DNA from: Roseomonas sp.
Lineage (GTDB): Bacteria > Pseudomonadota > Alphaproteobacteria > Acetobacterales > Acetobacteraceae
Assembly: GCA_020249775.1 (NCBI GenBank)
Contig: JADCFA010000002.1
Coordinates: 1-64,000 of the forward strand
DNA length: 64,000 bases
Direction of reading: 5' to 3'
In this document: positions 37,284 to 57,594 of the stretch, one piece after another
Layout: every line of letters begins with the position of its first letter
Numbering within the stretch: the first letter of the stretch is position 1
Position numbers and translations under genes: made by a program
The notes under the pieces: model-generated
The model's input: the letters and a program-made list of their open reading frames with translations, nothing else
Databases searched by the model: none
Told to the model about the DNA's origin: nothing

Positions 37284-37898
37284 CTATATCCCCGTTATTT
37301 CCTGCAAAGCCTGCGCGATGGTGGTGATGCGTGCGACCGGACGCAGCCCTTCAATCGCTGCCTGATGCACCGCGGAGGAAAACGCCGCGCAGCCATCTTC
37401 CAATACCGTGACTTCAAATTCACGCACATGCGCACCACGCACGGTGGAAGCCACCCCACCATTGGTGACGATGCCCGCGACAAGCAGCTTGCGAATGCCA
37501 GCCTTGCGCAACGCCCATTCCAGGCGCGAATTCCAGAAAGCGTCATAGCCGATCTTCTCGACCATTAGGTCGGATGGCGCCAATTCATCCACCAAAGCCT
37601 GGCCCCAGGATGCCGGCGCGAAATCCCCCTTGCGCAAAAAGGGCCGCATTTGCTTGAGGTGTTCGGCGATAAAGGGCTCCCCGCCCTTGCCCGGCACCAA
37701 GGTGAAATGGGTAGAAGCAATCCAGCCGCTTTTTGCGCGCATGGCCTGACACAGCGGCGCAAGCCGTGCAGGCAGTGCTGCGATGGTCGCGTCACCTTGT
37801 CCGCCGCGCGCATAAGCGCCCTTGGGATGAATAAAATCATTCTGCAAATCACACAGCAGCAAAGCGGTTTCGCTGATGGGAATGGCGCCTGCCATCAT
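37284..37898 (-). CDS. Isochorismatase-fold hydrolase lacking the nucleophilic Cys
   Basis: The 204-residue protein has the family Asp in LLLCDLQNDFIHP (Asp17) and Lys in VEKIGYDAFWNSRLE (Lys115). Where cysteine hydrolases such as N-carbamoylsarcosine amidase read T-N-V-C-V, this protein reads VTNGGVAST, so Gly148 replaces the Cys; the codon is GGG. True isochorismatases such as EntB and PhzD also have Gly here, so vinyl-ether hydrolysis or a non-hydrolytic role is possible. The start at 37898 overlaps the hyuA stop (TGATG); GTG 37901 and ATG 37895 are alternatives. It lies in an operon with hydantoinase subunits. Confidence 0.83.
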   Translation of the reverse strand: MMAGAIPISETALLLCDLQNDFIHPKGAYARGGQGDATIAALPARLAPLCQAMRAKSGWIASTHFTLVPGKGGEPFIAEHLKQMRPFLRKGDFAPASWGQALVDELAPSDLMVEKIGYDAFWNSRLEWALRKAGIRKLLVAGIVTNGGVASTVRGAHVREFEVTVLEDGCAAFSSAVHQAAIEGLRPVARITTIAQALQEITGI

Positions 37899-39949
37899 CA
37901 CGCCCTTTCGATAATCAAATTACCAAAGCGATCCACCCGCGCCACCAGGCCAGGGTCCACCACCACGGTTGCATCGGGTTGTTCCAGAATGGCGGGGCCG
38001 GGGATTTTTATACCCACCGGCAAATCAAGCCGCGCGTAAATACGAGCCTCATGCCACGCGCCAGCGAACCAAACCTGCCGCGCGCCGCGCACTGCTTTTT
38101 CAAGGCTTGCGTCAGACCCTGGCGCGAGTGCCGCCAGATCAAATGCCGGGCGCCGGCCAATCGCAGCACTGCGGAGCGACACAATCTTCACCGGCAATCC
38201 CGGCAGCAAGCGACTGAAGGCGCGTTGATAGGCGGCTTCAAAAGCCTGGCGCACAATCCCCTGCGTCACACCGGTGCTATTGCCTGCCACGGTCACGGGC
38301 AAAGGTACCGCGACGGTATGCGTCTGACCCGCGTAATGCATATCAAGCTTGAAGAGCGTTTCAATCCCCTCCACCGGCAGGCCCGCATCGCGCACCACCG
38401 CGACCGCGGCACTTGCTTCGCGCACCAGATGCGCATCCAGCGCGGCGGGATCGAGGCTATCCAAATCCAGATTGAGGGTGCGCACCTGATCATGCCGCAC
38501 ATCGGCGATGATGCAGCCAAGCGCCGAGGTAACCCCCGGAAAGCGCGGCACCAAAGCGGCCTTCAACCCAACCTCGGTCAGCAAGGCACCAACATGCAGC
38601 GCGCCACCGCCGCCGAAGGGGAGTGCGACAAAGCGCGCCGGATCAAGCCCGCGTTCGATGGAAACAAGCCTGATGGCGCCGGCCATTTTCGCATTCGCCA
38701 CACGCAGAATGGCTTCTGCCGCCGCCATGGCATCCAAGCCCAAAGGCGTACCGACATGCTGTTCAATCGCAGCCTTGGCCGCCGCAACATCAAGGCTGGC
38801 GAGTGCACCGCCAATCGGCCGCGCGGCATTGATGCGACCCAGCACCAAATTCGCATCCGTCAATGTGGGGCGATCATTGCCCTGGCCGTAACAGACCGGG
38901 CCGGGGCGACTGCCCGCGCTTTCCGGCCCCACTTGCAGCAAGCCGCCGCGATCCACCGCCGCGATGGAACCGCCGCCCGCGCCAATGGTCGTGATTTCAA
39001 TCATCGGGGAGCGGATCACCAGGCCGAAATCAATCGTCGCCTGGGCGGCCAGGGCCATTTGCCCATCGGCAATCAAAGACACATCGAATGAAGTGCCACC
39101 CAGATCGCAGGTGATCACATGGCTGAAGCCGGCGGCCTTGGCGATGGCACCCGCCGCAATCACCCCCGCTGCCGGGCCAGACAGCGCCGTGCGTGCTGGG
39201 AAGCGCCGCGCCGTTGCGGTGGACATGATGCCGCCATTGGATTGCACAATATGAAACCGCCCGCCGAAACCTTCTTCAGCGAGCGCGCCTTCCAGCTTGC
39301 CGAGATAACCCGCGACCAAAGGCTGCAAATAGGCATTGAGCGCCGTGGTCGAAGCCCGCTCAAACTCCCGAATTTCCGGCAGGATTTCTGAGGAAACCGA
39401 AACATGCGGATTGGGCCAAAGGCGCCGCACCGCTGCCGCCGCCGCCTGTTCATTGGCAGGATTGGCATAGGCATTGATGAAAATAATCGCACAGGATTCG
39501 GCGCCAGCGGCCAGCAATTGCCGCGCGGCTGCCTCCACCGCCGCGATATCAACCGGCCTATGGATGCTGCCATCAGCCAGGCAACGTTCCGGCACTTCCA
39601 GGCGCAAATCCCGCTCAGCAATCGGCTCAAAATCGCCCCAAAGCCCCCAGGTCTGGCGGCGATCTCGGCGACGCATTTCCAAGACATCGCGAAAGCCAGC
39701 GGTGGTGATCACGCCAAGCTTCGCACCCTTTCGTTCCAGCAGCGCATTGGTGCCAACCGTCGTGCCATGCACCACCGCCGCCATGCCAGAAGCACCGCCA
39801 AGCGCGCGAAGGCCCGCGAGAAACCCGGAAGCCTCATCACCGCGCTGGCTTGGCACTTTCGCGGTCTGAAAGCGCCCCGTCGCGGGATCGAATAGAAACA
39901 AATCGGTGAAGGTGCCACCAACATCAACGCCGACAATCGCACCATTCAT
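37898..39949 (-). CDS. hyuA: Hydantoinase/oxoprolinase family protein, subunit A
   Basis: The 683-residue protein begins with the sugar-kinase-like phosphate motif GVDVGGTFTDLFLFD and contains TTVGTNALLERKGAKLGVITTAGF and ITCDLGGTSFDVSLI, as in N-methylhydantoinase A, the acetone carboxylase beta-type subunit and 5-oxoprolinase. With HyuB it uses ATP to open a cyclic amide. The ATG at 39949 (MNGAIVGV) overlaps the hyuB stop; the ORF-track start lies inside hyuB. Substrate is unknown. Confidence 0.9.
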   Translation of the reverse strand: MNGAIVGVDVGGTFTDLFLFDPATGRFQTAKVPSQRGDEASGFLAGLRALGGASGMAAVVHGTTVGTNALLERKGAKLGVITTAGFRDVLEMRRRDRRQTWGLWGDFEPIAERDLRLEVPERCLADGSIHRPVDIAAVEAAARQLLAAGAESCAIIFINAYANPANEQAAAAAVRRLWPNPHVSVSSEILPEIREFERASTTALNAYLQPLVAGYLGKLEGALAEEGFGGRFHIVQSNGGIMSTATARRFPARTALSGPAAGVIAAGAIAKAAGFSHVITCDLGGTSFDVSLIADGQMALAAQATIDFGLVIRSPMIEITTIGAGGGSIAAVDRGGLLQVGPESAGSRPGPVCYGQGNDRPTLTDANLVLGRINAARPIGGALASLDVAAAKAAIEQHVGTPLGLDAMAAAEAILRVANAKMAGAIRLVSIERGLDPARFVALPFGGGGALHVGALLTEVGLKAALVPRFPGVTSALGCIIADVRHDQVRTLNLDLDSLDPAALDAHLVREASAAVAVVRDAGLPVEGIETLFKLDMHYAGQTHTVAVPLPVTVAGNSTGVTQGIVRQAFEAAYQRAFSRLLPGLPVKIVSLRSAAIGRRPAFDLAALAPGSDASLEKAVRGARQVWFAGAWHEARIYARLDLPVGIKIPGPAILEQPDATVVVDPGLVARVDRFGNLIIERA

Positions 39950-41637
39950 GATGCGCGCTTTCCGTAATCGCGCAGCGCCGCTTCGGCGCTGACATAGCCC
40001 AATCGGACGTCGCGCGCGATGGCTTCCATTGGCCGCGCGGCCGGATCGCCCCAACCGCCACCGCCTGGGCTTTCCAGCCGCACACGTTCACCTGGGCCGA
40101 TGGAAACACCAACAATCTTGCTTGCCATCGGTGGCGTTTCGCCCTCTGCTCCCCAGGTGAAGCGATTAAGCGCGCCATCAGCGCCGCCCGCCACACCAAA
40201 AGGCGCGAAACGCCCACGTTCACCCAGCAAGGCAACTTCCGTGCGGCCCGGCGCCAGTGCCTCAATCTCATAAATCGCACCAACACCGCCGCGATGTTCG
40301 CCAGCACCACCACTATCGGGGCGGAGCGCCCATTGCGTGAACATCACCGGATAGGCGGCCTCCAGAATCTCCACGGGTGGGATTGTTGCGGTTGAAATCG
40401 GGTTATTCGCGTGATGCAAACCATCAGAGGCAGGATTGCCGCCAAGCCCACCACCGAAGAAAGAGAACATCACCCAGCGCGTGCCATTTTCCCACTGGCC
40501 AGACAGCGCCAGCGCATTGATGGTGCCGAAAGGCGCGGCAGTCGCGGTGGCGGGGCGCGCCTTGCCCAGCGCACCGAAAATCACGCCAATCAGGCGCAGG
40601 ATGGTCTCCGTATAGCCCGCGACAGGGCGCGGTGCCTCCGCGCCCAATAGTGTCGTCGGCGGTGCAATCACTTCCACGGGGCGCAGCACGCCCGCATTGG
40701 CCGGTACATCCGGGAAAGCGTGCTTGAGCGCAACATAACAGGCCGCCACCGTGGTCGCGACCGAGATATTGAGCGGCCCCGCACAAGGCGGTGAGGAGCG
40801 CGACATATCCAGGATCAGCCGATCACCTTCAACCGTCAAATCAAGCGCAATGCGCAGCGCCTCATCCTTCACGCCGTCATTATCCAGGAAATCATCAAAG
40901 CTGTAGCGGCCGTCGGGCAGCGCCGCGATTTCTGCGCGCATCAGCGCTTCCGCGCGATCCGCCAATTGCGCGAAGGCGGCGGCGATGCGTGCATCGCCAT
41001 AATCACCCAGCAATTCAAGCAATCGCTTTTCACCGAGATCAAGCGCATTCAACTGCCCATTCAAATCGCCCCAATTGGATTGCGGTACGCGCGAATTGGC
41101 CGCCAGAATATCCAGAATATCCTGCTGCATCTGCCCGGCGCGGATCAGTTTTACCGGCGGGAAACGCACGCCTTCCTGATGGCTTTCGGTTGCGCGCGGA
41201 TTGTAATTGCCAGGCACATTGCCACCGATATCCAGCCAATGGCCAACACTCGCCACCCAGCAGAACAGCTTGCCCGCGCGGAAAATCGGCCGCACCAGGC
41301 GGAAATCATTCAAATGCGTCCCGCCATCATAGGGATCATTGAACAGGAAAGTATCGCCTTCCTGCAAGCCGCCTTCCGCCGCCACCTTGCGAATGACGGA
41401 ACGCACGGCGAAGGACATGGCACCGACAAAAATCGGCAGGCCCTTGGTGCCTTGCACCAAAGTATCGCCGGTGATCGCATCATAAACACCATGGCAGGCA
41501 TCGCGCGCTTCGGCGATGATCGGGTTGAAGGCGCTGCGATAAAGTGTCGCATCCATCTCATCGGCGATTTGTTCAAGCCTGCCCTTCAATACGGCCAGGG
41601 TCACGGCATCAAGGCGCGTCGTTACGGCTTTGTTCAT
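39946..41637 (-). CDS. hyuB: Hydantoinase B/oxoprolinase family protein
   Basis: The 563-residue protein matches HyuB: VTLAVLKGRLEQIADEMDATLYRSAFNPII at the start, TFLFNDPYDGGTHLNDFRLVRPIF, and SGGAGEHRGGVGAIYEIEAL towards the end. It forms an ATP-dependent amidohydrolase with HyuA. I used the ATG at 41637 (MNKAVTTR), which begins 1 bp after the end of livF. This places the catabolic genes directly behind the transporter genes in one operon. Confidence 0.9.
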   Translation of the reverse strand: MNKAVTTRLDAVTLAVLKGRLEQIADEMDATLYRSAFNPIIAEARDACHGVYDAITGDTLVQGTKGLPIFVGAMSFAVRSVIRKVAAEGGLQEGDTFLFNDPYDGGTHLNDFRLVRPIFRAGKLFCWVASVGHWLDIGGNVPGNYNPRATESHQEGVRFPPVKLIRAGQMQQDILDILAANSRVPQSNWGDLNGQLNALDLGEKRLLELLGDYGDARIAAAFAQLADRAEALMRAEIAALPDGRYSFDDFLDNDGVKDEALRIALDLTVEGDRLILDMSRSSPPCAGPLNISVATTVAACYVALKHAFPDVPANAGVLRPVEVIAPPTTLLGAEAPRPVAGYTETILRLIGVIFGALGKARPATATAAPFGTINALALSGQWENGTRWVMFSFFGGGLGGNPASDGLHHANNPISTATIPPVEILEAAYPVMFTQWALRPDSGGAGEHRGGVGAIYEIEALAPGRTEVALLGERGRFAPFGVAGGADGALNRFTWGAEGETPPMASKIVGVSIGPGERVRLESPGGGGWGDPAARPMEAIARDVRLGYVSAEAALRDYGKRAS

Positions 41638-41638
41638 T

Positions 41639-42340
41639 TCACAACCCAAGATAGCTGCGGCGCAATTCGGGGTCAGCGGCAATGTCGCGCGCCGCGCCGC
41701 TTAAGTTGATCACGCCATTTTCCAAGACATGCGCCTGATCCGCCACTTCAAGGCTTTGCGCGACATTCTGTTCCACCAGCATGATGGTGAGCCCATCCGC
41801 ATGCAGGCGCCGGATCAGCGTAAACATTTCCTCCACCAGCAAAGGCGAAAGGCCGAGCGATGGTTCATCCAGTATCAGCAGCTTTGGTTCCGCCATCAGC
41901 CCGCGCCCGATGGCGAGCATTTGCTGTTCCCCACCTGAAAGTGTGCCGGCGGCCTGGCGGGTGCGTTCCTTCAGGCGTGGGAAAATGCCAAAGACGCGTT
42001 CCAGATTGCGCGCGCGATTAGCCCGCGCGCGGCGATAGGAACCAAGTTCCAGCACTTCGCGCACATTCAAATTCGGGAAAATCTTGCGCCCTTCCGGCAC
42101 ATGGATAAGGCCAAGCGCCACGATTTCCGGCGACGAAAGCGCGGCCAGGCTCTGCCCCGCGAAGCGGATTTCCCCACCGCGCGGGCGCACCACGCCGCTG
42201 ATGGTCATGTTCAAAGTCGTCTTGCCCGCACCATTGGCGCCGAGCACCGCGACCAAAGCGCCTTCCGGCACACTCAGATCAATGCCACGCAGGATCAGTG
42301 TTTCGCCATAGCCCGCTTCAAGCGCTTTGATTTCAAGCAT
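41639..42340 (-). CDS. livF: Branched-chain amino acid-type ABC transporter ATP-binding protein (LivF)
   Basis: The 233-residue ATPase has Walker A GANGAGKTT, the ABC signature LSGGEQQML, Walker B LLILDEPSLGLSPLL and the switch His region (LVEQNV). The short LivF-type ending fits. It overlaps livG by 8 bp. The Liv label gives the family only; the cargo is probably the cyclic amide processed by HyuAB. Confidence 0.9.
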   Translation of the reverse strand: MLEIKALEAGYGETLILRGIDLSVPEGALVAVLGANGAGKTTLNMTISGVVRPRGGEIRFAGQSLAALSSPEIVALGLIHVPEGRKIFPNLNVREVLELGSYRRARANRARNLERVFGIFPRLKERTRQAAGTLSGGEQQMLAIGRGLMAEPKLLILDEPSLGLSPLLVEEMFTLIRRLHADGLTIMLVEQNVAQSLEVADQAHVLENGVINLSGAARDIAADPELRRSYLGL

Positions 42341-43094
42341 GGCCGGCCAACCTTTGCGCGGCGCCATGGCCCAAATAGGCCTCAATCACGGCGGGATTGC
42401 CCACCACCTCCGCCGCCTCACCCGAGGCGATGATCCGCCCGCCCGCCAACACATGCACATATTCGCAAAGGCTCATCACCGCCTGCATGACATGTTCGAT
42501 CATGAGGATAGTGACGCCACCCGCGCGAATATCCTGCAGCACCGGCAGAAAATCGCGCAGTTCGGATGGGTTCAGCCCGGCCAAGACTTCGTCCAACAAC
42601 AGAATGTGCGGGCGCGTGGCCAATGCGCGCGCAACTTCCAGGCGCTTGCGTCCCGCCACCGTCAGCGCTGCCGCGGGTTTGTCGAGCTGCGGGCCAAGGC
42701 CAAGGCGCTGCCCAACTTCTTCCGCCAATTCCAGCGCATCGCGGCGCTTGGGCAGGCGCAGAAAGGCACCAACAGCGATATTCTCGCGCACGGAAAGCCC
42801 GGCGAAGGGCTGCACAATCTGGAAGGTGCGCGCCAAGCCAAGCTGCGCCAAATCATGTGGCTTACGCCCGGTTATTTCCTCACCATCCAATAACACAAGC
42901 CCAGCGCTTGGCTGCTCGAAGCCGGCGATCATCGCGAATAGAGTTGTCTTGCCCGCGCCATTCGGGCCGATCAGCCCGGTGATGGAACCTTCCCGTACAT
43001 CGAAGGTTGCTTCAGATACCGCCGTCAGCCCGCCGAAGCGCTTGGTGAGATCACGCACCGCAAGGAAAGCGGGGTCCCTCCCCTGCCCTGTCAT
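42333..43094 (-). CDS. livG: Branched-chain amino acid-type ABC transporter ATP-binding protein (LivG)
   Basis: The 253-residue ATPase has Walker A GPNGAGKTT, a LivG-type GLARTFQIVQPFAGLSV insertion, and Walker B ILLLDEVLAGLNPSE. The signature region reads LTVAGRKRLEVA instead of a canonical LSGGQ, a variation seen in some LivG proteins. Start at ATG 43094, which overlaps the livM stop as ATGA, rather than the ORF-track GTG or ATG upstream. Confidence 0.9.
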   Translation of the reverse strand: MTGQGRDPAFLAVRDLTKRFGGLTAVSEATFDVREGSITGLIGPNGAGKTTLFAMIAGFEQPSAGLVLLDGEEITGRKPHDLAQLGLARTFQIVQPFAGLSVRENIAVGAFLRLPKRRDALELAEEVGQRLGLGPQLDKPAAALTVAGRKRLEVARALATRPHILLLDEVLAGLNPSELRDFLPVLQDIRAGGVTILMIEHVMQAVMSLCEYVHVLAGGRIIASGEAAEVVGNPAVIEAYLGHGAAQRLAGHA

Positions 43095-44050
43095 GGCGCC
43101 CCCCTGCCGCGCCAACGCGCAGCGAGCAGGCCCGGAATGCGATGCAAGGGAAAGCGCACCACCAGGATCAGCAGCACACCGAAAATGATCAGATCAACGC
43201 CAGGGATTTTGCCGATCAGCATTTTGGTGCCTTCGCTGAGGCCCTGCAGGATCAGCGCGCCAATCAGCGGGCCAAAGACCGTACCCGCGCCGCCGATGAT
43301 AGGCGCCAGCAGCGCTTCCACCGAAATCCAGGTACCAAAAGCAATATTGCTGTCAATATAGAGGAAATACTGCGCATAAAGCGCCCCCGCCGCGCCCGTC
43401 AGCGCAGCCGATAGGCTGATGGCGCGGAGCTTCACCGCCAGAATATCCACGCCAAGCGCAGCAGCGGCGGCTTCATTTTCGCGCACCGCCACAAGCTGCG
43501 CGCCGATCCGGCTTTTCTCCAAAGCGAGCGTGATCAGCATGGCAAGCGCGAGCAACACCGCGCCCAGAATCAGAAAGCTAGAGCGATTGGCAAATTGCAG
43601 ATTGCCCGCGCCGAGATTGAGGCTGATCAGCAAGCCCGCCGCACCACCCGTGATCTCGGTTGCATTGGCAAGGATGCGCAGCACCTCGGCAAAGGCCAAC
43701 GTCACCAGCGCGAAATAGGAACCGCGCAACCCAGCGCGAAACACCATGGCACCGATCGCATAGCCCAGCAGCGCGGCGGCAGCGATGCCGAAGGCCGCCG
43801 CCGGATAGGCATTCACGCCAAAGCGTTGTTGCAGAATGGCGCTGACATAAGCGCCCATGCCGAAAAACGCCGCATGGCCAAAGGAATATTGCCCCCCATA
43901 ACCGCCGAGCAGATTCCAGCCTTGTGCAGCAATGGCCAGGATCAGTGTAAAGACCAGGAAGTTCAGCACCACATTGCTGGTGACGAACAAGGAAACCAGC
44001 ACGGCGGCCACCAGAAAGCCCAGAATGGGCAGGGTTTCGCGGGCAGTCAT
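43091..44050 (-). CDS. livM: Branched-chain amino acid-type ABC transporter permease (LivM)
   Basis: The 319-residue protein is strongly hydrophobic, with about 9-10 membrane segments, and carries the LivM motif GGYGGQYSFGHAAFFGMGAYV and the cytoplasmic loop ENEAAAAALGVDILAVKLRA that contacts the ATPases. It overlaps its neighbours livG and livH by 4 bp each. Confidence 0.91.
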   Translation of the reverse strand: MTARETLPILGFLVAAVLVSLFVTSNVVLNFLVFTLILAIAAQGWNLLGGYGGQYSFGHAAFFGMGAYVSAILQQRFGVNAYPAAAFGIAAAALLGYAIGAMVFRAGLRGSYFALVTLAFAEVLRILANATEITGGAAGLLISLNLGAGNLQFANRSSFLILGAVLLALAMLITLALEKSRIGAQLVAVRENEAAAAALGVDILAVKLRAISLSAALTGAAGALYAQYFLYIDSNIAFGTWISVEALLAPIIGGAGTVFGPLIGALILQGLSEGTKMLIGKIPGVDLIIFGVLLILVVRFPLHRIPGLLAARWRGRGAP

Positions 44051-44922
44051 GCGCGCGCCCCGAACAACCCGGTTGGGCGCAGCAAAAGCACCAGAATGAA
44101 GATCAGGAAAATCCCGATCTGGCCAAGACTATCGCCAAAATAAAGGCCACTCAGGCTTTCCACCACGCCGATGAACAAACCACCCAGCAGCGCCCCTGTC
44201 ACACTGCCCATGCCGCCCAGCACGACAATGGTGAAAGCCACCAGCACAAAGGCATTGCCGACACGTGGCGAGACATAGAAGGAGGGCAGCAAAAGACAGG
44301 CGGCGATGGCAAGACAAGCCGTGCCGATGCCGAAAGTCACCGCATAGATATGCGCGACATCAATACCAACCAAAGCCGCCCCAGTGCGTTCCTTCGCCAC
44401 AGCGCGAATGGCGCGGCCGGTATCGGTGCGCGTCATCAGCACAAACAAAAGCAGCGCCAGCAGCAGCGTCACGCCAAAGCCGATCAGGCGCGGCAGCGAC
44501 AGCAGGATATCGCCAAGCTCCACCATGGACATGGCATAGGGCAGGCGGATCGTCATGGTGTCGGACCGGAAAATCGCCAGCATGGCGTTTTCGATGATGA
44601 TCGAAAGGCCAAGTGTGACCAGCAACATATTGGAATCATCGCCTCGGCTGGCGGGCCCGATCACCAGGCGCTGCACCAGATAGCCCAGCACGAAGAACAG
44701 CCCCGCCAGAGGGATCATCGCCGCATAAGGATCAAGCCCAAAGGCGCGATGCGCGACAAAGGCCGCATACATGGCCAGCGTCAGCAACGCGCCATGGGCA
44801 AAGTTGATGATGTGCAACACGCCGTAAACCAGCGTGAGGCCCAGCGCCACCAGCCCATACACGGCCCCCATCAGGAGGCCGTTTGCCACGGCCTCCAACA
44901 GAATTTCGGGCGGGTAGCCCAT
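44047..44922 (-). CDS. livH: Branched-chain amino acid-type ABC transporter permease (LivH)
   Basis: The 291-residue hydrophobic permease begins ILLEAVANGLLMGAVYGLVA, with LTLVYGVLHIINFAHGALL typical of LivH and the coupling loop VAKERTGAALVGIDVAHIY. The start at ATG 44922 (MGYPPEILL) is 1 bp after the end of the binding-protein gene and better than the extended ORF start at 44961. Confidence 0.91.
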   Translation of the reverse strand: MGYPPEILLEAVANGLLMGAVYGLVALGLTLVYGVLHIINFAHGALLTLAMYAAFVAHRAFGLDPYAAMIPLAGLFFVLGYLVQRLVIGPASRGDDSNMLLVTLGLSIIIENAMLAIFRSDTMTIRLPYAMSMVELGDILLSLPRLIGFGVTLLLALLLFVLMTRTDTGRAIRAVAKERTGAALVGIDVAHIYAVTFGIGTACLAIAACLLLPSFYVSPRVGNAFVLVAFTIVVLGGMGSVTGALLGGLFIGVVESLSGLYFGDSLGQIGIFLIFILVLLLRPTGLFGARA

Positions 44923-44923
44923 C

Positions 44924-46135
44924 TCAGCCGGTGACGGGATAGATCGGCTGGGCGTCCGCAAAATCGCGCGGGAAGATCACCTTGATATCGCCATTCTGCA
45001 CTTGCGTGTTCACTGGCTTGCCGCCCTGGTTCTGGCCATTGACGAATTGCGTCGGCCCATAGGGCATGATGTGGCTATCAAAAGCCGGGCCCGTTGCCGC
45101 AAGCGCCTGGATCAACGCGCCACGATCCGCCCGGCCAGCGCGTTCCAACGCATCGGCGAAGAGCATCACAGCGGAATAATTCAGCGGCACATTGTAAAGC
45201 CAGAAGCGATTTTGTGCTTCCACGCGCCGACGCAGCTCAGCGGTTTTCGGCTTGCGCGGATCGGCCCAATGGTTGCAATCCATCACCAGATTGGCTGCCT
45301 CAGGAAATTCCCGCACAAAGCGGAAATTGGAAGCCGCGCCATTCAGGATGCAATAAATCCCCTTGGGGCGAATGCGCCGCTGCTGCAAGGTTTGCGACAG
45401 CAGCACGAATTCCGCGTAGTAGGATGAGGGGATGATCAGATCGGGATTGAGCGCGCGAATACGCAGCGCCACATTGGACATGTCACGCGATGGCGTTGGG
45501 TGCGCGATGGTCTCCAGCACCTGGAAACCGCGCTTGGGCAATTCCGCATTCAGCAGCCGCGCCATGCCGGAACCGAATAGCCCATCTTCATGCACAATCA
45601 CCGCGGTACGGGAAGGCTTGCCCGCAGCGTCATTGATCGCGACCAGATTATCCAAAGCCGTCGCCGTCACGGTGCCAAAGCCAGGCCCAAAGCGGAAGGT
45701 ATTGGTCAAGCCGCGAGAGACGATCTGATCAGACACGCCGACATCCACAATATAGGGCAGGTCATAGCGTGACGCGGCCTGCGAAGCGGCGAGGCAAATC
45801 GGGCTCGCGAAGCCGCCCACAATCGCCAGCACGCCTTCGGCCTGCATTTTCTCAACCTCCGCCACGCCGCCATCGGGCGTGGAGCGTGCATCGCCGAAGA
45901 CCATTTCAATCTGCGCGCCACCAAGCGCCTTGATGCCGCCGCCGGCATTGATATCGGCAATGGCAAGTTCAGCGCCGAGCCGCCCATACTCGCCATCCTG
46001 CGCCAAAGCGCCGGTCACGGGCTGGATAATGCCAAGCTTGATGGCACGCGACTGTGCCTTGGCAATGGCCGGCGCAGCAAGCAGCGCGGGGGCGGCAAGC
46101 AGCGCCCGCCGCCGGGAAAGGCTGAAAGAAGGCAT
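44924..46135 (-). CDS. ABC transporter substrate-binding protein, Liv/amide type
   Basis: The 403-residue periplasmic protein starts with a Tat-like signal (SLSRRRALLAAPALLAAPAIAKA) and then the type I periplasmic-binding fold: IKLGIIQPVTGALAQDGEYGRLGAELAIADINAGGGI, a motif common in amide/urea/branched-chain binding proteins. I chose the ATG at 46135, preceded by GGGGAG; the ORF-track start extends into the intergenic region. It is the first gene of the liv-hyu operon, so its expression should report the inducing substrate. Confidence 0.9.
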   Translation of the reverse strand: MPSFSLSRRRALLAAPALLAAPAIAKAQSRAIKLGIIQPVTGALAQDGEYGRLGAELAIADINAGGGIKALGGAQIEMVFGDARSTPDGGVAEVEKMQAEGVLAIVGGFASPICLAASQAASRYDLPYIVDVGVSDQIVSRGLTNTFRFGPGFGTVTATALDNLVAINDAAGKPSRTAVIVHEDGLFGSGMARLLNAELPKRGFQVLETIAHPTPSRDMSNVALRIRALNPDLIIPSSYYAEFVLLSQTLQQRRIRPKGIYCILNGAASNFRFVREFPEAANLVMDCNHWADPRKPKTAELRRRVEAQNRFWLYNVPLNYSAVMLFADALERAGRADRGALIQALAATGPAFDSHIMPYGPTQFVNGQNQGGKPVNTQVQNGDIKVIFPRDFADAQPIYPVTG

Positions 46136-46443
46136 CGGAGACTCCCCTGTTATGACCCAGAAATGGTCATGCCCCAGGCTTTGCCAATGGGCCAGGGGGA
46201 ATCTACGAAGGGCGCAAAAAAGCCCCCAAAATATAGCCTCCAGGGTTATCTGGACCGCTAGTGCCTGGCCGGGCCGCCCTCTATGGCCGCTATAAGAGGC
46301 AGCGACCGCTAGCCACATAAGTCAAGACGCCTTGACAAGTCTCCATCAGACGACCTTTCCCGTATTTCTCCGGGACATCAAAGCCTCGCCGCACGCCTAT
46401 TTCATTGCGAATTTTTTTACCGAATTAGGCGATATTACGCCCC
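46136..46443. other. 308-bp divergent intergenic region, no gene supported
   Basis: This gap separates the binding-protein gene (minus) from the unknown 817-aa gene (plus). It becomes AT-rich towards the plus-strand gene (GCGAATTTTTTTACCGAATTAGG). A palindrome sits in the middle (listed separately). No ORF with coding character and no tRNA-like fold is evident, and I do not see a clean -35/-10 pair at standard spacing. The long ORF-track extension of the binding protein into this gap lacks a ribosome-binding site. Confidence 0.6.
46321..46336. promoter_or_regulatory. Palindrome GTCAAG-N4-CTTGAC, candidate operator
   Basis: GTCAAGACGCCTTGAC is a perfect 6-bp inverted repeat with a 4-bp spacer, lying between the two divergent genes. 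The size and symmetry suit a dimeric transcription factor, for example a GntR- or TetR-type regulator of the liv-hyu operon. The TTGAC half on the plus strand also looks like a -35 element (TTGACA at 46332). No regulator gene is adjacent. Confidence 0.5.
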
Positions 46444-48897
46444 GTGAGCGCAAGATCCAACCAAAGCTTCAAGCAATTCAACCCAAAGCTCTATGAGCCG
46501 GCAACCTTTGTTGACCGCGGGGTCAATCTTCCTTTCACGACTCCTCTGCTCTTTGGCGCGCGGGCGCGGCCTCAGGAAGACAATTGTGGGCTTGAAGTGA
46601 TCATTGCCAACCCATCCGGTGGGGAGGGCGTTTACATTTTCCCCTGGGCTTCAATACCTCAAATCTGTGCACCTACGCTGCATGACCGACGACTTTGGCA
46701 ACTCCTGCGTGACGAGAGCTCTCTAACCCCCCAAAGCGTGCAGGATGCTGCCGAGACGGCTGCACTTGAGGGTTTAGCAGGCCGTGGCGCTGCCGCCGCA
46801 GTTCAGGAGGCAAGGGTGGCGCGCGAAGCCCGCCGGAAGCGCATCAATTTTGGTTTGATACTGAATTTGATTAAAAGAACTGAAGGGCCAAACATTACAA
46901 GCCCACCGCCTGAATTGGATGACCCAAGGCAACTGATGATACGCAGCCAGCGTGCGGTCGCACGTTGTGCGACACAGCTGCGAACAACAACCGAGGCAGT
47001 GGCTTCGGCGCTTGAGGAATTATCGAAGGCATTTAATGGGTTTGGCCTTCCGCAGGATCATCAACCGGCACCTGCCCGTCGGCTGCTGGCTGAGCTAGGC
47101 AAGACCACACAGTCAGTCGGCAGTTGGCGCGAGCAATCCTCTGATGAAACCACGTCTACCACGACAAATTTGGTCCTCCATTCGCTTGAACTGACCCTCA
47201 ATTGCGCTGTCCAGGCAGTCGAGGAATTCGATATCCTCATCAGCGATACCATGGCAATTCTTGAAGCGTGGCAGAAAGATTGTGGCGATGTAAGCCAACG
47301 GTTAACGAGAATTGATTGGTTATTGGATGGATGGGACACGATCATCGGCATCTGGGATGCGGCCCCAATGCAGGAAAAGGCGAGCGCCATCATGGAAATG
47401 GCGCTACTTGCGCCAATCCTGCCCAAGGAAGTCACAGCCTGGAATGGCATTGATACCGATCTGTCAAGGGAGCGACGCACCGCACGTATCGTTCAACAAT
47501 TCGAGGATTGGCGCAGTGGACGCCTAGTCGAAATGATTGCGCGAAACGAGGAATTGGCACATCGTGGTCGACAAAGTCAATCCAAACGGCTTCCCGTACG
47601 AGCCAATAATTCCCCAATTAACAACAAAAATAATGCATTAGATGGCTGGGCACCAAGCAAGCCCCATAACTCTGCTGCGTCAACAGCGCGCGGCAAGACT
47701 CAACTCGCCGAAACCCGTCACTTGATCCATGCCCTGGCCGCGGCATCAGACATGGCGCTAACAAATGTTTTGAAAATTCTCGATCGTTTGCCAGACCGGC
47801 TTGAGGCTGACCGGCTCCTGGACGCCGCACGCCCCCGGCTTCGTCAAATTCGGCCGATCAGAAGCCTTCAATTTACGCGACTACTTTTCTTGCCACTGGA
47901 TGGCGCGATTGCGGATAACGCCGAATGGAAACGGGATGATTGGCGGCTGCCACGCGCCGCCCTTCCCAGTATCGCCGAGGCACTGCGCAGCGCGATGGGA
48001 CAAGAAATACTACAGATCGATGCCAGTATGGCAGGCAAGACTTTTCAGGATACTGGCGTAATAGATCGTATAGGCTGTAGCCTTTGGACTAGGGCCGCAT
48101 CACTTGCCTCTGCCTTGAAACCAGGACCGCGTTGGGAGAGCAGCGGCATGCGCCAGGAAGATTTCGTGCCGCTGGTACGCTTGGCAGAGGGCGTGTGGCG
48201 CCACGCATCTGGGCTCTGGGCCGCCATCAAACTTGCCGGCTGGGGACCGCCGGATGAAGCAGTGCGCGCTGCATTAATGCCCATGGTTGCCGAGGGATCA
48301 ACAGCCTTTGCCATGGGCTTGGCGACCTTACTTCAGAAGGCAACAAGCCCAGGCTTGGTCGCCCTGACAGCCTCAAAATTATCTGATCAGGCCGCCATTA
48401 TTGCCGATGCAGCCTTGGATGACTGGCTGGCGAAAGCCCGCGTAACGCTTCCGGGAGAGGATCTTACGGCAGCGGCATCACTCGCTGAATCTTTTGGGCG
48501 CGCCTTTCAGGATTTGGAAAATGCACCGCCCACACGCAATCCGCGACGCGCAGAGCGGCTAGTTCAATTACGCCAAGAGGCTGAGATCACTTGTCGCCTC
48601 GCCTATGAGGACGGGCTTGAAAGCGAGATATTGAGAAAACTGCCTTTGCTTGCTTCATCGGCAACGCAAGAGCAAGTCATTGCGCTGGAAGACCAGGCCC
48701 GTGCCCTACGTCGCATAGAATTGATTGGTCGGCGCTACGGCATAGATCATGGCTATGACGGCGCCGCAAAGCGGATCGTGGGCGTACTAAACACAACAAA
48801 GCAATCATTGACGCCCATGGGGCTAACAAGGCTTGATCTGGCACGCCTAGGGGAGATTTTACTAGGACCAGAAGCGGCGCTCGACCTTCTGACGTAA
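46444..48897 (+). CDS. Large protein of unknown function (817 aa)
   Basis: I do not recognise this gene. It starts with GTG at 46444 and runs uninterrupted for 817 codons. The first ~90 residues look like a compact domain (VNLPFTTPLLFGAR at 27-40; NPSGGEGVYIFPWASIPQIC at 56-75; PTLHDRRLWQLL at 78-89). The rest is mostly helical and Ala/Leu/Arg-rich, with a low-complexity Asn/Ser stretch near residues 385-410 (NNSPINNKNN). There is no signal peptide, membrane helix, P-loop or metal motif that I can see. Codons are less GC-ended than in neighbours and the leader is AT-rich, hinting at transfer or a different selective history. It is divergent from the liv-hyu operon and convergent with the ATP-grasp gene. 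Confidence 0.85.
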   Translation: MSARSNQSFKQFNPKLYEPATFVDRGVNLPFTTPLLFGARARPQEDNCGLEVIIANPSGGEGVYIFPWASIPQICAPTLHDRRLWQLLRDESSLTPQSVQDAAETAALEGLAGRGAAAAVQEARVAREARRKRINFGLILNLIKRTEGPNITSPPPELDDPRQLMIRSQRAVARCATQLRTTTEAVASALEELSKAFNGFGLPQDHQPAPARRLLAELGKTTQSVGSWREQSSDETTSTTTNLVLHSLELTLNCAVQAVEEFDILISDTMAILEAWQKDCGDVSQRLTRIDWLLDGWDTIIGIWDAAPMQEKASAIMEMALLAPILPKEVTAWNGIDTDLSRERRTARIVQQFEDWRSGRLVEMIARNEELAHRGRQSQSKRLPVRANNSPINNKNNALDGWAPSKPHNSAASTARGKTQLAETRHLIHALAAASDMALTNVLKILDRLPDRLEADRLLDAARPRLRQIRPIRSLQFTRLLFLPLDGAIADNAEWKRDDWRLPRAALPSIAEALRSAMGQEILQIDASMAGKTFQDTGVIDRIGCSLWTRAASLASALKPGPRWESSGMRQEDFVPLVRLAEGVWRHASGLWAAIKLAGWGPPDEAVRAALMPMVAEGSTAFAMGLATLLQKATSPGLVALTASKLSDQAAIIADAALDDWLAKARVTLPGEDLTAAASLAESFGRAFQDLENAPPTRNPRRAERLVQLRQEAEITCRLAYEDGLESEILRKLPLLASSATQEQVIALEDQARALRRIELIGRRYGIDHGYDGAAKRIVGVLNTTKQSLTPMGLTRLDLARLGEILLGPEAALDLLT

Positions 48898-52366: not shown

Positions 52367-53896
52367 ATGGCTGCCCCGCGCGTTATTGTGATTGGCGCCG
52401 GCATGGGCGGCTTGGCGGCCGCCGCTGATCTCGCGCGGTGCGGCGCGGCGGTAACGGTGCTGGAACGCGCGAGCACCCCCGGCGGCAAGATGCGCGAAGT
52501 CATGGTGGATGGCAGCCCGATTGATGGCGGCCCCACGGTTTTCACCATGCGCTGGATTTTTGAGGGGCTGTTCGCGGATGCCGGCGCTTCCCTTGATGCG
52601 GCGCTGTCTTTGCAGAAAGCAGATATCCTGGCGCGACATGCCTGGCGCGCCGGCGGCAGGCTGGATCTTTTTGCTGATATCGCGCGTTCCGCTGATGCCA
52701 TCGGCGATTTCGCCGGCGCGGCGGAGGCGCGCGGCTATCGCGCCTTTTGTGCGCGGAGCGCTGATATCTTCCGCACATTGCGCGGTTCCTTCATTGCCGC
52801 CGAACGCCCCTCCCCGCTTGATCTGGTCAAGCGCGTGGGCATTACGAATATCGCGGCCCTCATTCGCACCGCGCCGATGAAAACCCTTTGGGATGCATTG
52901 GGTGAGCATTTTCGCGACCCGCGCTTGCGCCAGCTATTTGGGCGGTATGCGACCTATTGCGGATGTTCCCCCTGGTTGGCGCCGGCCACGCTGATGCTAG
53001 TGGCGCATGTCGAACAGGATGGCGTGTGGTTCGTGAAGGGCGGCATGCGGCGCGTGGCGGACGCGATCCAGCGCTTGGCGGAAACCAAAGGCGCTGAATT
53101 TCGCTTTGGCGCGGAGGTTGCGGAAGTGCTCACGCGCCAAGGCCGGGTTTCTGGTGTGCGGCTGGGCAATGGTGAGGAAATTGCCGCCGATGCGGTGGTG
53201 TTCAACGGCGATGTCGCCGCACTGGGGCAGGGCCTCTTGGGGCAAGCGCCACGAAACGCCGCCGAGGATACGCCGCGGGCCGCGCGTTCCCTTTCCGCCA
53301 TCACCTGGTGCGTGAAGGCGTCAACGGCTGGCTTTCCACTCGTGCATCACAATGTATTCTTCGCTGAGGATTACGCGGCGGAATTTGAGGCGATTTTCCG
53401 CCGGCGCGACATCACCGCCGCACCCACGGTCTATGTTTGCGCGCAGGACCGCGAAGCTGGGCCAGGACCTTCGGAGGGCACGCCGGAACGCATGCTGGTT
53501 TTGATCAATGCGCCGCCCGATGGTGATCGGCGCAGGCATAGGTCAGACGAGATCGCAGAATTTGGTGAACGCGGTTTTGGCCTGCTGAAAGCTTGCGGGT
53601 TAGAGGTAGCACGCGATGTGGGCGCTGAGGTGGTTACTACGCCGGAAGGATTCGCGCGGCTTTTCCCGGGCTCGGGTGGCGCGCTTTATGGCCGCGCGAG
53701 CCATGGAACAACCGGCACCTTCGCGCGCCCCGGCGCGGTGACGCGCTTACAGGGGCTCTATTTGGCTGGCGGTTCTGTGCATCCCGGCCCTGGCATTCCC
53801 ATGGCGGCTATGTCGGGCCGCATTGCCGCAGCGCGGCTTTTGGAAGATTGGGCCGGCGCGCGTGGGGTGATTCGGATTGGCGCCGGGTGCGTTTAG
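52367..53896 (+). CDS. crtD: 1-hydroxycarotenoid 3,4-desaturase CrtD
   Basis: The 509-residue FAD-dependent desaturase has the N-terminal FAD motif VIGAGMGGLAAAADLARCG, GGKMREV, DGGPTVFTM and a C-terminal FAD block LYLAGGSVHPGPGIPMAAMSG. Among the CrtI-like family, the GGPTVFTM form and the paired presence of a separate CrtI mark it as CrtD, which introduces the 3,4 double bond in spheroidene/spirilloxanthin-type synthesis. It overlaps the convergent crtI gene by 4 bp at the stop codons. crtC and crtF are not in the window. Confidence 0.85.
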   Translation: MAAPRVIVIGAGMGGLAAAADLARCGAAVTVLERASTPGGKMREVMVDGSPIDGGPTVFTMRWIFEGLFADAGASLDAALSLQKADILARHAWRAGGRLDLFADIARSADAIGDFAGAAEARGYRAFCARSADIFRTLRGSFIAAERPSPLDLVKRVGITNIAALIRTAPMKTLWDALGEHFRDPRLRQLFGRYATYCGCSPWLAPATLMLVAHVEQDGVWFVKGGMRRVADAIQRLAETKGAEFRFGAEVAEVLTRQGRVSGVRLGNGEEIAADAVVFNGDVAALGQGLLGQAPRNAAEDTPRAARSLSAITWCVKASTAGFPLVHHNVFFAEDYAAEFEAIFRRRDITAAPTVYVCAQDREAGPGPSEGTPERMLVLINAPPDGDRRRHRSDEIAEFGERGFGLLKACGLEVARDVGAEVVTTPEGFARLFPGSGGALYGRASHGTTGTFARPGAVTRLQGLYLAGGSVHPGPGIPMAAMSGRIAAARLLEDWAGARGVIRIGAGCV

Positions 53897-55410
53897 TTAC
53901 GCCTTAACGTATCACCATGCGGCACAAGCTGATCCAAGACCTTCGCAGAGGAAATGACACCCGGCACACCCGCGCCCGGATGAGTGCCGGCACCCACCAG
54001 ATAAAGCCCCTGCACTTCTTCGCTCACATTATGTGGGCGGAACCAGGCGCTTTGGAAAAGCTGTGGCTCAAGTGCAAAGGCAGCACCATTCACGGATAAC
54101 AGCCGATCCCGAAAATCCTGGGGCGTAATCATGCGCGATGTGACCAGCGCCTCACCAAGTCCAGGTAAGACCGTTTCTTCCAGGCGCTTTTCAATCGCCT
54201 TGCGATAGGGCTCCGCATGCTTGGCCCAATCAACCTTGCTGCCCAAATGCGGCACGGGGGCAAGCACGTAGAAGGAATCGCAGCCCGGCGGCGCTAGCGA
54301 CGCATCTGTGGCAGTTGGGCGATGCAGATAAAGGCTGAAATCTTGCGCCAAATGCTTTCGCGTGAAAATATCGTGCAGCAATTCCTGGTAACGCGGCCCA
54401 AGCACCATGGTGTGGTGATAGACATCGTCATACCGACGCTTGGTACCAAAATACCAGACGAAGAGGCTCATGGAATAGCGCGCGCGGGCGATCTTGCGGT
54501 CGGTCCAACGCCGGCGTGGGTAATCCTGCAAAAGCTTACTGTAGGTCCAAGCAACATCGGCGTTGGAGACAATGATGTCAGCATCGAGCCTTTCGCCATC
54601 TGCCAACTCAACGCCTGTAGCACGGCGACCTTCGGTAGTGATGCGCTTAACCTCAGCATTATAGCGAATAGTGCCACCAAGACGTATCGCGAGATCAAGG
54701 ATGCCTTGCACCAGCGCGCCCATGCCCCCCATGGCGTAATGCACGCCATGCAAGCGTTCCAGATGCGCAATCAGGCAATAATAGGCAGTGGTGGTCATGG
54801 GGTTCCCGCCAATCAGCAGCGGGTGGAAGCTGAACGCAACGCGCAGCTTTTCGCTTGTGAAATAATCGCAGACGCGACTATAGACGGTGCGGTAACCCTT
54901 CAACCGGATCAAATCCGGCGCGGCACTGATCAGGCTCATGAGGCTATGAAAGGGCTTATCGGCCAATTCGGCGAATGCCACGCGAAAGATGCGTTCGCTT
55001 TCAAGAATGAAACGCTCGAAACCAGCACTATCTTGCGGCGCAATCCGCGCAACCTCGGCCCGCGTCACATCAAGCTCCGCGGAACAGCGCATTACCTCGC
55101 CATCATCGAAGCGGATCAGGTAAAAGGGATCCATCGCGCGCAGATCAATATCCTGCGCAAGCTTGCGGCCAGCGAGCGACCAGAGTTCTTCCAGCAAATA
55201 AGGCGCGGTGATGATGGTTGGGCCCGCATCAAAGGTAAAACCATCCTGCCGAAAGACATAAGCACGCCCACCAGGCGCATCCAGCTTTTCAAGGATAGTC
55301 ACGCGCCAACCACGCGCGCCAAGCCGAACCGCCGCAGCCAAGCCGCCGAAACCGGAGCCAATCACAATCGCATGCGGGCGCTGATCCTGCGCCTTCAACT
55401 CATTCAGCAT
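53893..55410 (-). CDS. crtI: Phytoene desaturase CrtI
   Basis: The 505-residue enzyme has the FAD motif VIGSGFGGLAAAVRLGARG (about residues 16-34), GGRAYVF, FDAGPTIITAP and the C-terminal block GLYLVGAGTHPGAGVPGVI. It desaturates phytoene towards neurosporene or lycopene. I start it at ATG 55410 (MLNELKAQ); ATG 55425 is possible and the ORF-track start reaches into the terminator hairpin. The Shine-Dalgarno is weak (GGTG). crtB, usually its neighbour, is absent from the window. Confidence 0.87.
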   Translation of the reverse strand: MLNELKAQDQRPHAIVIGSGFGGLAAAVRLGARGWRVTILEKLDAPGGRAYVFRQDGFTFDAGPTIITAPYLLEELWSLAGRKLAQDIDLRAMDPFYLIRFDDGEVMRCSAELDVTRAEVARIAPQDSAGFERFILESERIFRVAFAELADKPFHSLMSLISAAPDLIRLKGYRTVYSRVCDYFTSEKLRVAFSFHPLLIGGNPMTTTAYYCLIAHLERLHGVHYAMGGMGALVQGILDLAIRLGGTIRYNAEVKRITTEGRRATGVELADGERLDADIIVSNADVAWTYSKLLQDYPRRRWTDRKIARARYSMSLFVWYFGTKRRYDDVYHHTMVLGPRYQELLHDIFTRKHLAQDFSLYLHRPTATDASLAPPGCDSFYVLAPVPHLGSKVDWAKHAEPYRKAIEKRLEETVLPGLGEALVTSRMITPQDFRDRLLSVNGAAFALEPQLFQSAWFRPHNVSEEVQGLYLVGAGTHPGAGVPGVISSAKVLDQLVPHGDTLRRN

Positions 55411-55489
55411 GAAACACCAAAGCATACAAACAGAAAAGGAAAGCCCCCGCGCAAGACGCGGAGGCCCCAAAGCTTCATCACACAAGGAA

Positions 55490-55512
55490 GGGCGGGATCA
55501 GTCATCCCGCCC
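55490..55512 (-). terminator. Hairpin terminator after pufC
   Basis: GGGCGGGAT-CAGTC-ATCCCGCCC is a perfect 9-bp stem with a 5-base loop, 7 bp after the pufC stop, followed on the minus strand by TTCCTTGTGT. It is well placed to end or protect the long puf transcript before crtI, which reads on in the same direction. Confidence 0.72.
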
Positions 55513-55519
55513 TAACCTG

Positions 55520-56596
55520 TTATCGCGGCGTGGCATCGGCTGACCGCAGCGGGCCTTGGTTGACCTGCTTCAATTCAGGGAAGTCACGCAGCATGGGCGC
55601 ACCATTCAGGGGACGATTGACCCCCTGATGGCAAGTTGCGCAATTCACCTTCAGCGGATCACCCATCGCCCCAAGCCGCGGGCCATGTGGGCCTTCCGCA
55701 GGACCATTCGGATTGCGCGCCCAAAGCGGCTTCAGCGGTTCGATGTAGGACATGTTGATGTCCCGCACCATGCGGATGCCATGCCAGGCAGTTGTCCGCG
55801 CCGGCGGGCTTTGTGCCCATTCAGCGAAGGATCGGCTGTTATGGCAATGGGTGCAATTCACGCCAAGCGAGGTGGACATATGCATCATCAACGCATAGGT
55901 CCATTCCGTTGTCATAATATTTTGGCTGTTGCGGCCAGGCAGCGAAGTGGTGCTGATATTGCGGATCTGCTGATCACCCAAAAGGAAGGGGGTGAAGGGA
56001 TCCGAAGGCAGTGAACTCTCACCCACGGAAGCAGCAGGATGGTTCTGCCCACGTGGAGATTGCAGACCAGCGCGGCTATTTGGTTCAGTTGACCACACCA
56101 TGGTCGGCACGGGGTTGCCGCGATGGCAGGTGTAGCAGGTCACACCGGTTTGGCCGACATGGGTCGCCCATTCCGAATTGATCTTATGCGTCATCTGCAA
56201 CATGCGCCGGGCAACAACTTTGGTATAGACTTCGTCCGAGGCCATGTTCTCAACATTGTGGCAATAGCCGCAGCCTTGATTGGGCGCGATCCATTCCGTC
56301 ATGGCCAGCATGATACGGTTGAACTGCGCTTCACTCACATCACGTAGCACTTGAACATTCTGATAGGCTTCATGCGCCCGCGGCCCTGTCGTGTCAGCTG
56401 CTTCAGATGCTTCAGGCACCTGATTGGCCGCAAGGCGTGCTGGGATCATGCGCGGATTTTGAACCTCGCCCATCGAAAGCCCGCGGAAGCCGCCTTGCAC
56501 GGACATGACCGGTGGGCGTTCAAAGGTGGTGACGAAGATCACCCCGCCAAGCAGCGCCACCACAAAGGCAGCGATGCTAAGTGAAAACCTGCTCAT
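55520..56596 (-). CDS. pufC: Photosynthetic reaction centre tetraheme cytochrome c subunit
   Basis: The 358-residue subunit has four CxxCH heme sites: CGYCH (109-113), CYTCH (154-158), CTHCH (248-252) and CATCH (319-323), with Met-bearing helices before the first three (e.g. RMLQMTHKI). It docks to the periplasmic face of the reaction centre and re-reduces the special pair. The N-terminus is a membrane segment ([20 protein letters not shown]) without a lipobox Cys, so it is anchored by an uncleaved helix rather than by lipid. Its ATG overlaps the pufM stop by 4 bp. Confidence 0.96.
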
Positions 56597-57573
56597 CGCG
56601 GCGCTCCTTGTACGATGGAGGGATCAACAGCGGGTGTCCAAGGCATTGTGTAGGCCGGCGCGAAGTGCCGATCCACCGCCCAGAGATACCAGTTATCAAC
56701 CACAGTGCCGGTCAGTAGAATGCCAATCCCGCCCGTGACAGGGCAAAGAAAGGCAAACCACCAGGCCCAGCGGTGGATGCTTTCGAAAGTGGCGTTGAAG
56801 CCCATGGTCCAGCGCCAGAACAGGCCACCACGTTCTGCCGCCGTGCCACGATCCAATGTCTGTTCGATTTCACGCTCACCGCCATAGCGGCCGAGTGCCA
56901 GAATGGTTGCTGCATGCATCGCAAAGAGCAAGACGGAACCATAAAGAAACACAATCGAAAGCGCATGGAAGGGGTTGTAGAACAGATTGCCGTAGCGGAT
57001 GGAAAAGGCCGCCGTCCAATCCAGATGGGGGAAGATGCCGAAGGGCACTGCTTCGCTCCAGCTTCCCATGGCGACGGGGCGGATGAAGCCCAGTACCAGG
57101 TAAAGCCAGATGGCACCCGCGAAGGCCCAGGCCACATGCGTGCCCATGCCAAGCTGACGTGCGCGCCGATAGGTACGCACCCACCAGAGCAACATGGAAA
57201 GTGTCAGGAAGAAGCCCGCCACGATCCACCAACCGCCCTTGTTCAGCGGCGGAATGCGCAAACCATATTCCGGCGGTGGCGGTTCCAGCGCCAGCCAGAA
57301 AAGCTGACGGATGAATTCGCTGAGATTCCAATTCACCGAGGCCAGCATGCAAAGCCCGATGATCTCAAAGGCAATGAAGCCAAAGAGCAACGAGAGAATG
57401 CCAAGATAGCCAAGATAGAAAGGCCCTATCTGCGCATCGCCAAGGCGGCCAAAAAGATGCACCTCACGCGGTGTGCCTTCACGCGGAGAGCTATCGGCGG
57501 GAAGGGGCACACCAGGATAGGGTGCCGGTCCGCGCACCTGTATTCGGGTGAAGATATTCTGATATTCGGCCAT
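56593..57573 (-). CDS. pufM: Photosynthetic reaction centre M subunit
   Basis: The 326-residue protein is a five-helix reaction-centre M subunit: [19 protein letters not shown] (helix A), the [19 protein letters not shown] helix with bacteriochlorophyll His, [12 protein letters not shown], and the NPFHAL region with Tyr near P. It binds pigments, quinone A and the non-heme iron with PufL. It follows pufL by 21 bp and overlaps pufC by 4 bp. Confidence 0.97.
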
Positions 57574-57594
57574 GGGAATTTTCCCTCCCCTCGC

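What the first reader, a model, noticed from the sequence alone, without database searches (positions are those of the whole stretch)
46444..48897. Large orphan protein with a novel-looking N-terminal domain
An uninterrupted 817-codon gene shows no family that I can recognise. Its first ~90 residues look like a small conserved domain (NPSGGEGVYIFPW, PTLHDRRLWQLL) attached to a long helical body with an Asn/Ser-rich hinge near residue 390. It sits alone between two oppositely oriented units, has a GTG start, an AT-rich leader and less GC-ended codons than its neighbours.
Basis: partly seen in the sequence, partly recalled or inferred. Interest (0 to 1): 0.7.

Follow-up and report, generated by a model that had tools for sequence, protein, structure and literature searches.

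The report
Fused two-protein family with hyperdivergent alleles
The "orphan" gene is a fusion of two partner proteins, unnamed in the libraries searched, that sit side by side in about a tenth of sampled alphaproteobacterial genomes; in its freshwater relatives it belongs to a set of four sister genes whose versions differ between species far more than any neighbouring gene, as if whole versions were being swapped.

Summary
The ORF is real: 817 codons, a conserved GTG start, pN/pS about 0.19. No Pfam, NCBIfam, PADLOC, PHROG, PDB-sequence or Foldseek match was found. It is not a single-genome orphan and not an N-domain with variable tails. It is a fusion of two unrelated, adjacent proteins: N (residues 1-380) and C (426-817), joined by the Asn/Ser hinge. 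Most homologues are two genes; in five split relatives of the same genus they overlap as ATGA, so translation is probably coupled. The family is sporadic in Alphaproteobacteria (45% of sampled genomes of its family, 9% of the class).

In one clade the fused gene became four paralogues, A-B-C-D. All four are kept in 8 of 8 well-covered genomes, as a tandem array or, in this genome, dispersed to four loci.

All four copies are saturated at synonymous sites between this genome and a syntenic relative (pS 0.65-0.72), against 0.24-0.56 in 52 flanking genes. A few genome pairs instead show about 0.25, gene by gene. Gene trees conflict, and one gene carries an imported tract. This supports exchange of ancient alleles rather than a high mutation rate.

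Biochemical function is unknown. My best guess is a cytoplasmic heteromeric helical assembly under antagonistic selection.

The parts
46444..48897 (+). fused N-C gene, paralogue type C, 817 aa, GTG start
   Evidence: start aligned with L005-L008; pN/pS 0.138/0.718 against L005
46319..46443 (+). AT-rich leader; contains a stretch TTGCGA-TTTT-TTTACCGAAT largely shared with L005
   Evidence: alignment; no convincing sigma-70 promoter
46444..47583 (+). N-partner half (residues 1-380); a separate gene of ~375-400 codons in most relatives
46495..46728 (+). strand-containing N-terminal domain (residues ~18-95) with FTTP, GAR, NPSG, YIFPW, PTLHD motifs
   Evidence: alignment A1; AF2 strands 40-43, 50-55, 63-67
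47506..47556 (+). conserved end motif of the N half, DWRxG...ARNExL (residues 355-371), near the C-terminus of the separate N proteins
   Evidence: alignment A1
47584..47718 (+). Asn/Ser-rich linker (residues 381-425), the fusion junction
   Evidence: maps to the N-stop/C-start ATGA overlap of split relatives; low pLDDT; fastest-evolving stretch
47719..48894 (+). C-partner half (residues 426-817), all-helical; a separate downstream gene in most relatives
47830..47904 (+). most conserved motif of the C half, RPRLxxxRPxRxLxFxRLLFLPLDG (residues 463-487)
   Evidence: alignment A2, A3

Best explanation
The gene encodes two partner proteins fused into one chain. Their stand-alone versions are adjacent, probably translationally coupled genes and therefore most likely form an obligatory cytoplasmic complex of a strand-containing helical N subunit and an all-helical C subunit. 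In this clade the fusion was made once and became four non-redundant paralogues (A-D), which probably assemble together as a heteromeric scaffold or adaptor. Each gene exists as several ancient alleles, older than the species splits, that are exchanged between related species by homologous recombination in whole-gene or shorter tracts; this gene is the type C copy, relocated from the ancestral array. Supported by data here: fusion, pairing, four-paralogue retention, locus-specific divergence, recombination. Inferred: the physical complex, the scaffold role, and that the allele diversity is kept by antagonists such as phages or competitors.
For: Fusion: in most genomes of the family homologues are split at residue ~380-410, and N lies immediately upstream of C on the same strand across the class. 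N-stop and C-start overlap as ATGA in five of five split genus members and in L045. All 13 fused sequences form one group on the tree (SH-aLRT 94). N and C are not homologous to each other. Four paralogues: all of A, B, C, D in 8 of 8 well-covered fused genomes; tandem A-B-C-D between a hydroxyacid-dehydrogenase/enolase-like pair and a D-aminoacylase gene in G539, G540, G547. Allele pattern: between G000 and G529 the four focal genes have pS 0.718, 0.688, 0.653, 0.656, the four highest of 56 syntenic genes (52 neighbours at 0.24-0.56; rank chance about 3e-6). For similar flank distances the focal genes are either about 0.25 (G539-G547 all four; G530-G540 A only; G540-G541 D) or at least 0.53. 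No correlation with uvrA distance. A, B, C, D and uvrA trees conflict: A and uvrA are rejected against all the others. In gene D, codons 311-350, G547 carries a tract 82-85% identical to G532/G540/G541 (69-70% in the stretch upstream of it) while G539 does not (pS 0.95, permutation P 0.0002). Split relatives show no such excess (N 0.27-0.47, C 0.34-0.50, uvrA 0.25-0.36).
Against: No experiment or complex prediction shows that N and C, or A-D, bind. No dN/dS hot spot outside the linker, so no recognition surface is visible. Several of the genomes are MAGs. GC3 is depressed in the fused clade only, which allele exchange alone does not explain. uvrA is a single marker with weak support on most of its branches and may itself recombine. 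B, C and D trees partly agree. No functional neighbour is conserved.
Confidence: 0.55

Rival explanations
1. The four fused genes have a genuinely higher mutation rate, or no codon selection, in this clade and are inherited vertically; saturation is just speed.
For: All four copies at separate loci are affected; GC3 is depressed only in the fused clade; edges coincide with the gene.
Against: G539-G547 has the same flank distance yet all four genes are at 0.23-0.31; G530-G540 shares only A, and G540-G541 shares D but not A. An imported tract in D. Trees conflict. Even this model then needs repeated transfers.
Confidence: 0.15
2. Birth and death: each type had several ancient tandem duplicates and every lineage kept a different one, so the 'orthologues' compared are old paralogues.
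For: G531 and G541 carry two A-type copies; tandem arrays favour unequal exchange.
Against: Nearly every genome pair is saturated for all four types, which would need very many ancient copies per type, all but one lost each time; single copies are the rule for B, C, D. It does not explain the intragenic tract.
Confidence: 0.2
3. An ordinary conserved hypothetical housekeeping pair; the divergence is of no functional meaning.
For: Low pN/pS, no hot spots outside the linker, near-normal divergence in split relatives, no conserved neighbourhood.
Against: Four of four focal genes lie outside the range of 52 neighbours, repeatedly and gene by gene in other pairs.
Confidence: 0.1

Closest known systems
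NCBI/PGAP 'hypothetical protein' pairs in Azospirillum, e.g. WP_014249635.1 and WP_014249636.1 (A. lipoferum 4B, plasmid AZO_p3)
   Same: N found by tblastn (35.7% identity over 62% of the query); the hypothetical protein directly downstream on the same strand, 2 bases on, fits the C gene
   Different: Two separate genes, no function assigned; not fused. The downstream gene was not itself aligned to the C profile in this record
Fused or split partner subunits read as evidence of interaction ('Rosetta stone' logic; general knowledge)
   Same: Separate adjacent genes in most genomes, one chain in one clade
   Different: Neither partner has a known family
Loci with trans-species alleles kept by allele exchange (general knowledge; for instance surface antigen and restriction-specificity loci)
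   Same: Alleles older than species divergence, mosaic tracts, flanks at normal distance
   Different: No signal peptide or membrane segment; low pN/pS; four co-retained paralogues
Helical-repeat scaffolds (ARM, TPR, importin-like)
   Same: Mostly helical model
   Different: Foldseek best E 0.38, TM-scores far below 0.5, not significant

Membership tests
Pfam-A / NCBIfam family | score over the curated cut-off | tested here: not met
   best Pfam DUF7547 E 2.6e-4, matched by 6 of 31 members; window member 17.5 bits against cut-off 27
Known anti-phage defence system (PADLOC) | match to a PADLOC profile | tested here: not met
   only Type I specificity subunit, E 0.016 over 76 helical residues
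Phage protein (PHROGs, INPHARED) | profile or tblastn match | tested here: not met
   none significant
Solved protein fold (PDB) | Foldseek E below 0.001 | tested here: not met
   model mean pLDDT 73 from 10 sequences
N-C pair family (defined here) | N profile match with the C profile match directly downstream, same strand | tested here: met
   window gene holds both in one frame
   C partner found with N at most loci; at a few (e.g. L075, L077, L086, L087) no C match was detected
Trans-species allelic exchange locus | alleles older than flanks, gene trees conflicting with a marker tree, recombinant tracts | tested here: met
Trans-species allelic exchange locus | several deep alleles within one species | not testable with these tools
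   one genome per species is held
Heteromeric complex | physical binding of N and C or of A-D | not testable with these tools
   inferred from fusion and ATGA overlap only

The most novel reading that the evidence does not exclude
The A-D set is an intracellular four-subunit recognition or defence complex, unrelated to any known system, whose subunits carry MHC-like ancient alleles shuffled gene by gene between species because phages or rivals select for rare types.
Probability: 0.2. Interest if true: 0.85.

Novelty: categorically new. Interest (0 to 1): 0.6.

Why it matters
A protein pair spread over the Alphaproteobacteria, present in the model plant-associated genus Azospirillum, has no family name and no similar solved fold. 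Its fusion history predicts a testable complex. The fused clade offers a rare case of four cytoplasmic genes whose alleles appear to predate the species. Such patterns usually mark strong antagonistic selection, so the loci point to an interaction that has apparently not been looked for. The label 'categorically new' refers to the protein family and its behaviour; its biochemical kind is unassigned.

Tried and rejected
Single-sequence AF2 of the N half: pLDDT 38, useless, a wasted job. Homology between N and C halves: none. Phage origin: none. Link to phototrophy (the window lies next to puf genes): reaction-centre genes are in 14 of 15 N/C-positive and 1 of 4 negative genomes of the genus, but in the wider family 6 of 19 N/C-positive and 5 of 12 negative genomes have them, so no general association. 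Conserved neighbours: only an AlkA-like glycosylase and a two-component pair near split copies in several Acetobacteraceae, not recurring class-wide. Recent foreign origin from the low GC3: rejected by synteny with L005. The L010 Acidobacteria hit: not confirmed by the profiles. The C-profile phylum search found nothing outside this genome but scored few candidates; the N profile in the phylum found one weak hit outside the class, E 2e-7 in the helical part, not trusted. Literature searches found nothing on this family.

Full report
What is there. The frame 46444-48897 (+) is a real gene of 817 codons with a GTG start. Chance of such an open run at this composition is about 2e-11. The start is supported by the aligned N-termini of L005-L008. 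Between the window and the syntenic L005 the protein is 79% identical, pN 0.138 and pS 0.718, so it is under purifying selection. GC3 (0.537) and codon adaptation (0.467) are the lowest of the window's called genes. There is no membrane segment or signal peptide by hydropathy (maximum 19-residue mean 1.25).

No known family. Pfam, NCBIfam and PADLOC gave nothing over cut-off for the window protein; scanning all 31 N-half and 30 C-half relatives against Pfam gave only scattered weak hits. PHROGs, phage genomes, PDB sequences and profile searches of the PDB gave nothing credible. An AF2 model of the full protein built on ten sequences (mean pLDDT 73, pTM 0.60) has a small three-stranded element at 40-67, helices elsewhere and a low-confidence hinge at 327-439. 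Foldseek finds no significant match in the PDB (best E 0.38) or in viral structures (best E 0.09).

It is two proteins in one. The genome holds four full-length copies, this one and three at 32-36% identity. In the family, 27 of 60 genomes have it, and most carry two genes: one matching residues ~1-380 and ending in a stop, the next matching ~410-817. In the class, 21 of 240 genomes match the N profile, and the C profile matches directly downstream on the same strand in most of the loci taken. In five split members of the genus the N stop and the C start overlap as ATGA, as they do in L045. The halves are not homologous to each other. On the N-half tree all fused sequences lie on one side of a branch, consistent with one fusion event. 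No third gene is conserved across the class. Azospirillum megaplasmids carry the pair annotated as hypothetical proteins.

Four paralogues kept together. In eight fused genomes with good coverage all four types A, B, C, D are present. G539, G540 and G547 have them in a tandem array, order A-B-C-D, between a hydroxyacid-dehydrogenase/enolase-like pair and a D-aminoacylase gene (gene names are my reading of the sequences). In this genome and in G529 the array is broken up: A still lies beside the dehydrogenase, D beside the aminoacylase, while B and C (the window gene) sit elsewhere. Other members of the genus have one split pair or none.

Locus-specific hyperdivergence. Comparing this genome with G529 over four syntenic regions, 52 neighbouring genes have pS 0.24-0.56 and pN up to about 0.11. 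The four focal genes have pS 0.718 (C), 0.688 (A), 0.653 (D), 0.656 (B) and pN 0.138-0.188; they are the four highest pS values, a rank pattern with chance about 3e-6 (wrong-frame and non-syntenic rows set aside by me). Divergence is high from the first to the last codon of the window gene and in the intergenic stretches, and falls back to 86-91% identity inside the flanking genes.

Rate or exchange. If the genes simply mutated fast, every genome pair would be saturated. Instead, at similar flank distances, values fall into two groups: G539-G547 all four at 0.23-0.31; G530-G540 A 0.245 but B, C, D 0.69-0.72; G540-G541 D 0.258 but A 0.678; the other pairs at least 0.53. There is no correlation with uvrA divergence. 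Trees of A, B, C, D and uvrA conflict by AU test, with A and uvrA rejected against every other tree, while B, C and D partly agree. Gene D of G547 contains codons 311-350 that match G532/G540/G541 (82-85%) while its upstream part does not (69-70%) and while G539 lacks the tract; permutation P 0.0002. So alleles move horizontally, as whole genes and as tracts. The split pairs of the same genus do not show the excess.

Interpretation. Shown by sequence: two-part architecture, adjacency, fusion, four-paralogue retention, recombination of deeply divergent alleles. Inferred: that N and C bind each other (fusion plus ATGA overlap), that A-D act together (co-retention), and that antagonists maintain the alleles (the pattern is what frequency-dependent selection leaves, but pN/pS is low and no recognition surface stands out). 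Low GC3 of the fused clade remains unexplained; weak expression is the simplest guess.

Limits. Several genomes are MAGs, one per species; flanks and focal genes share contigs where compared, which argues against binning artefacts. uvrA is a single marker. The genome searches use a loose first look that scores few candidates per genome, so presence frequencies are lower bounds. My gene calls in the loci come from a simple ORF heuristic and can pick wrong frames in high-GC genomes.

Noticed in passing
L045:10830-11495, L046:11156-11794, L049:5383-5979, L053:7835-8794, L058:11455-12102, L009:5202-5858: An AlkA-like (HhH-GPD) DNA glycosylase gene lies directly beside the N gene in six loci of several Acetobacteraceae genera, often with an OmpR-type two-component pair next to it; probably ancestral synteny.
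   Followed up: partly
L009:5786-7864: The type C fused gene of G533 is truncated or frameshifted near 7720 (692 aa plus a fragment); pseudogene or assembly error.
   Followed up: no
L093:8441-8815: In Azospirillum a ~124-aa hypothetical protein follows the N-C pair on the same strand; not seen to recur elsewhere.
   Followed up: partly
L075:8899-10089: A divergent N match lies in a 1985-residue stop-free frame with no C partner detected; could be a fusion or a high-GC artefact.
   Followed up: no
L054:7307-11910 and L083:8413-13519: Tandem N-C-N or N-C-N-C arrangements occur in unrelated genomes, so tandem duplication of the split pair has happened more than once.
   Followed up: no
window 37284-46318 and 52367-58419: The gene lies between a branched-chain amino-acid-type transporter/hydantoinase-like operon and a carotenoid/photosynthetic reaction-centre region (Photo_RC at 56665-58332); no functional link found.
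   Followed up: yes
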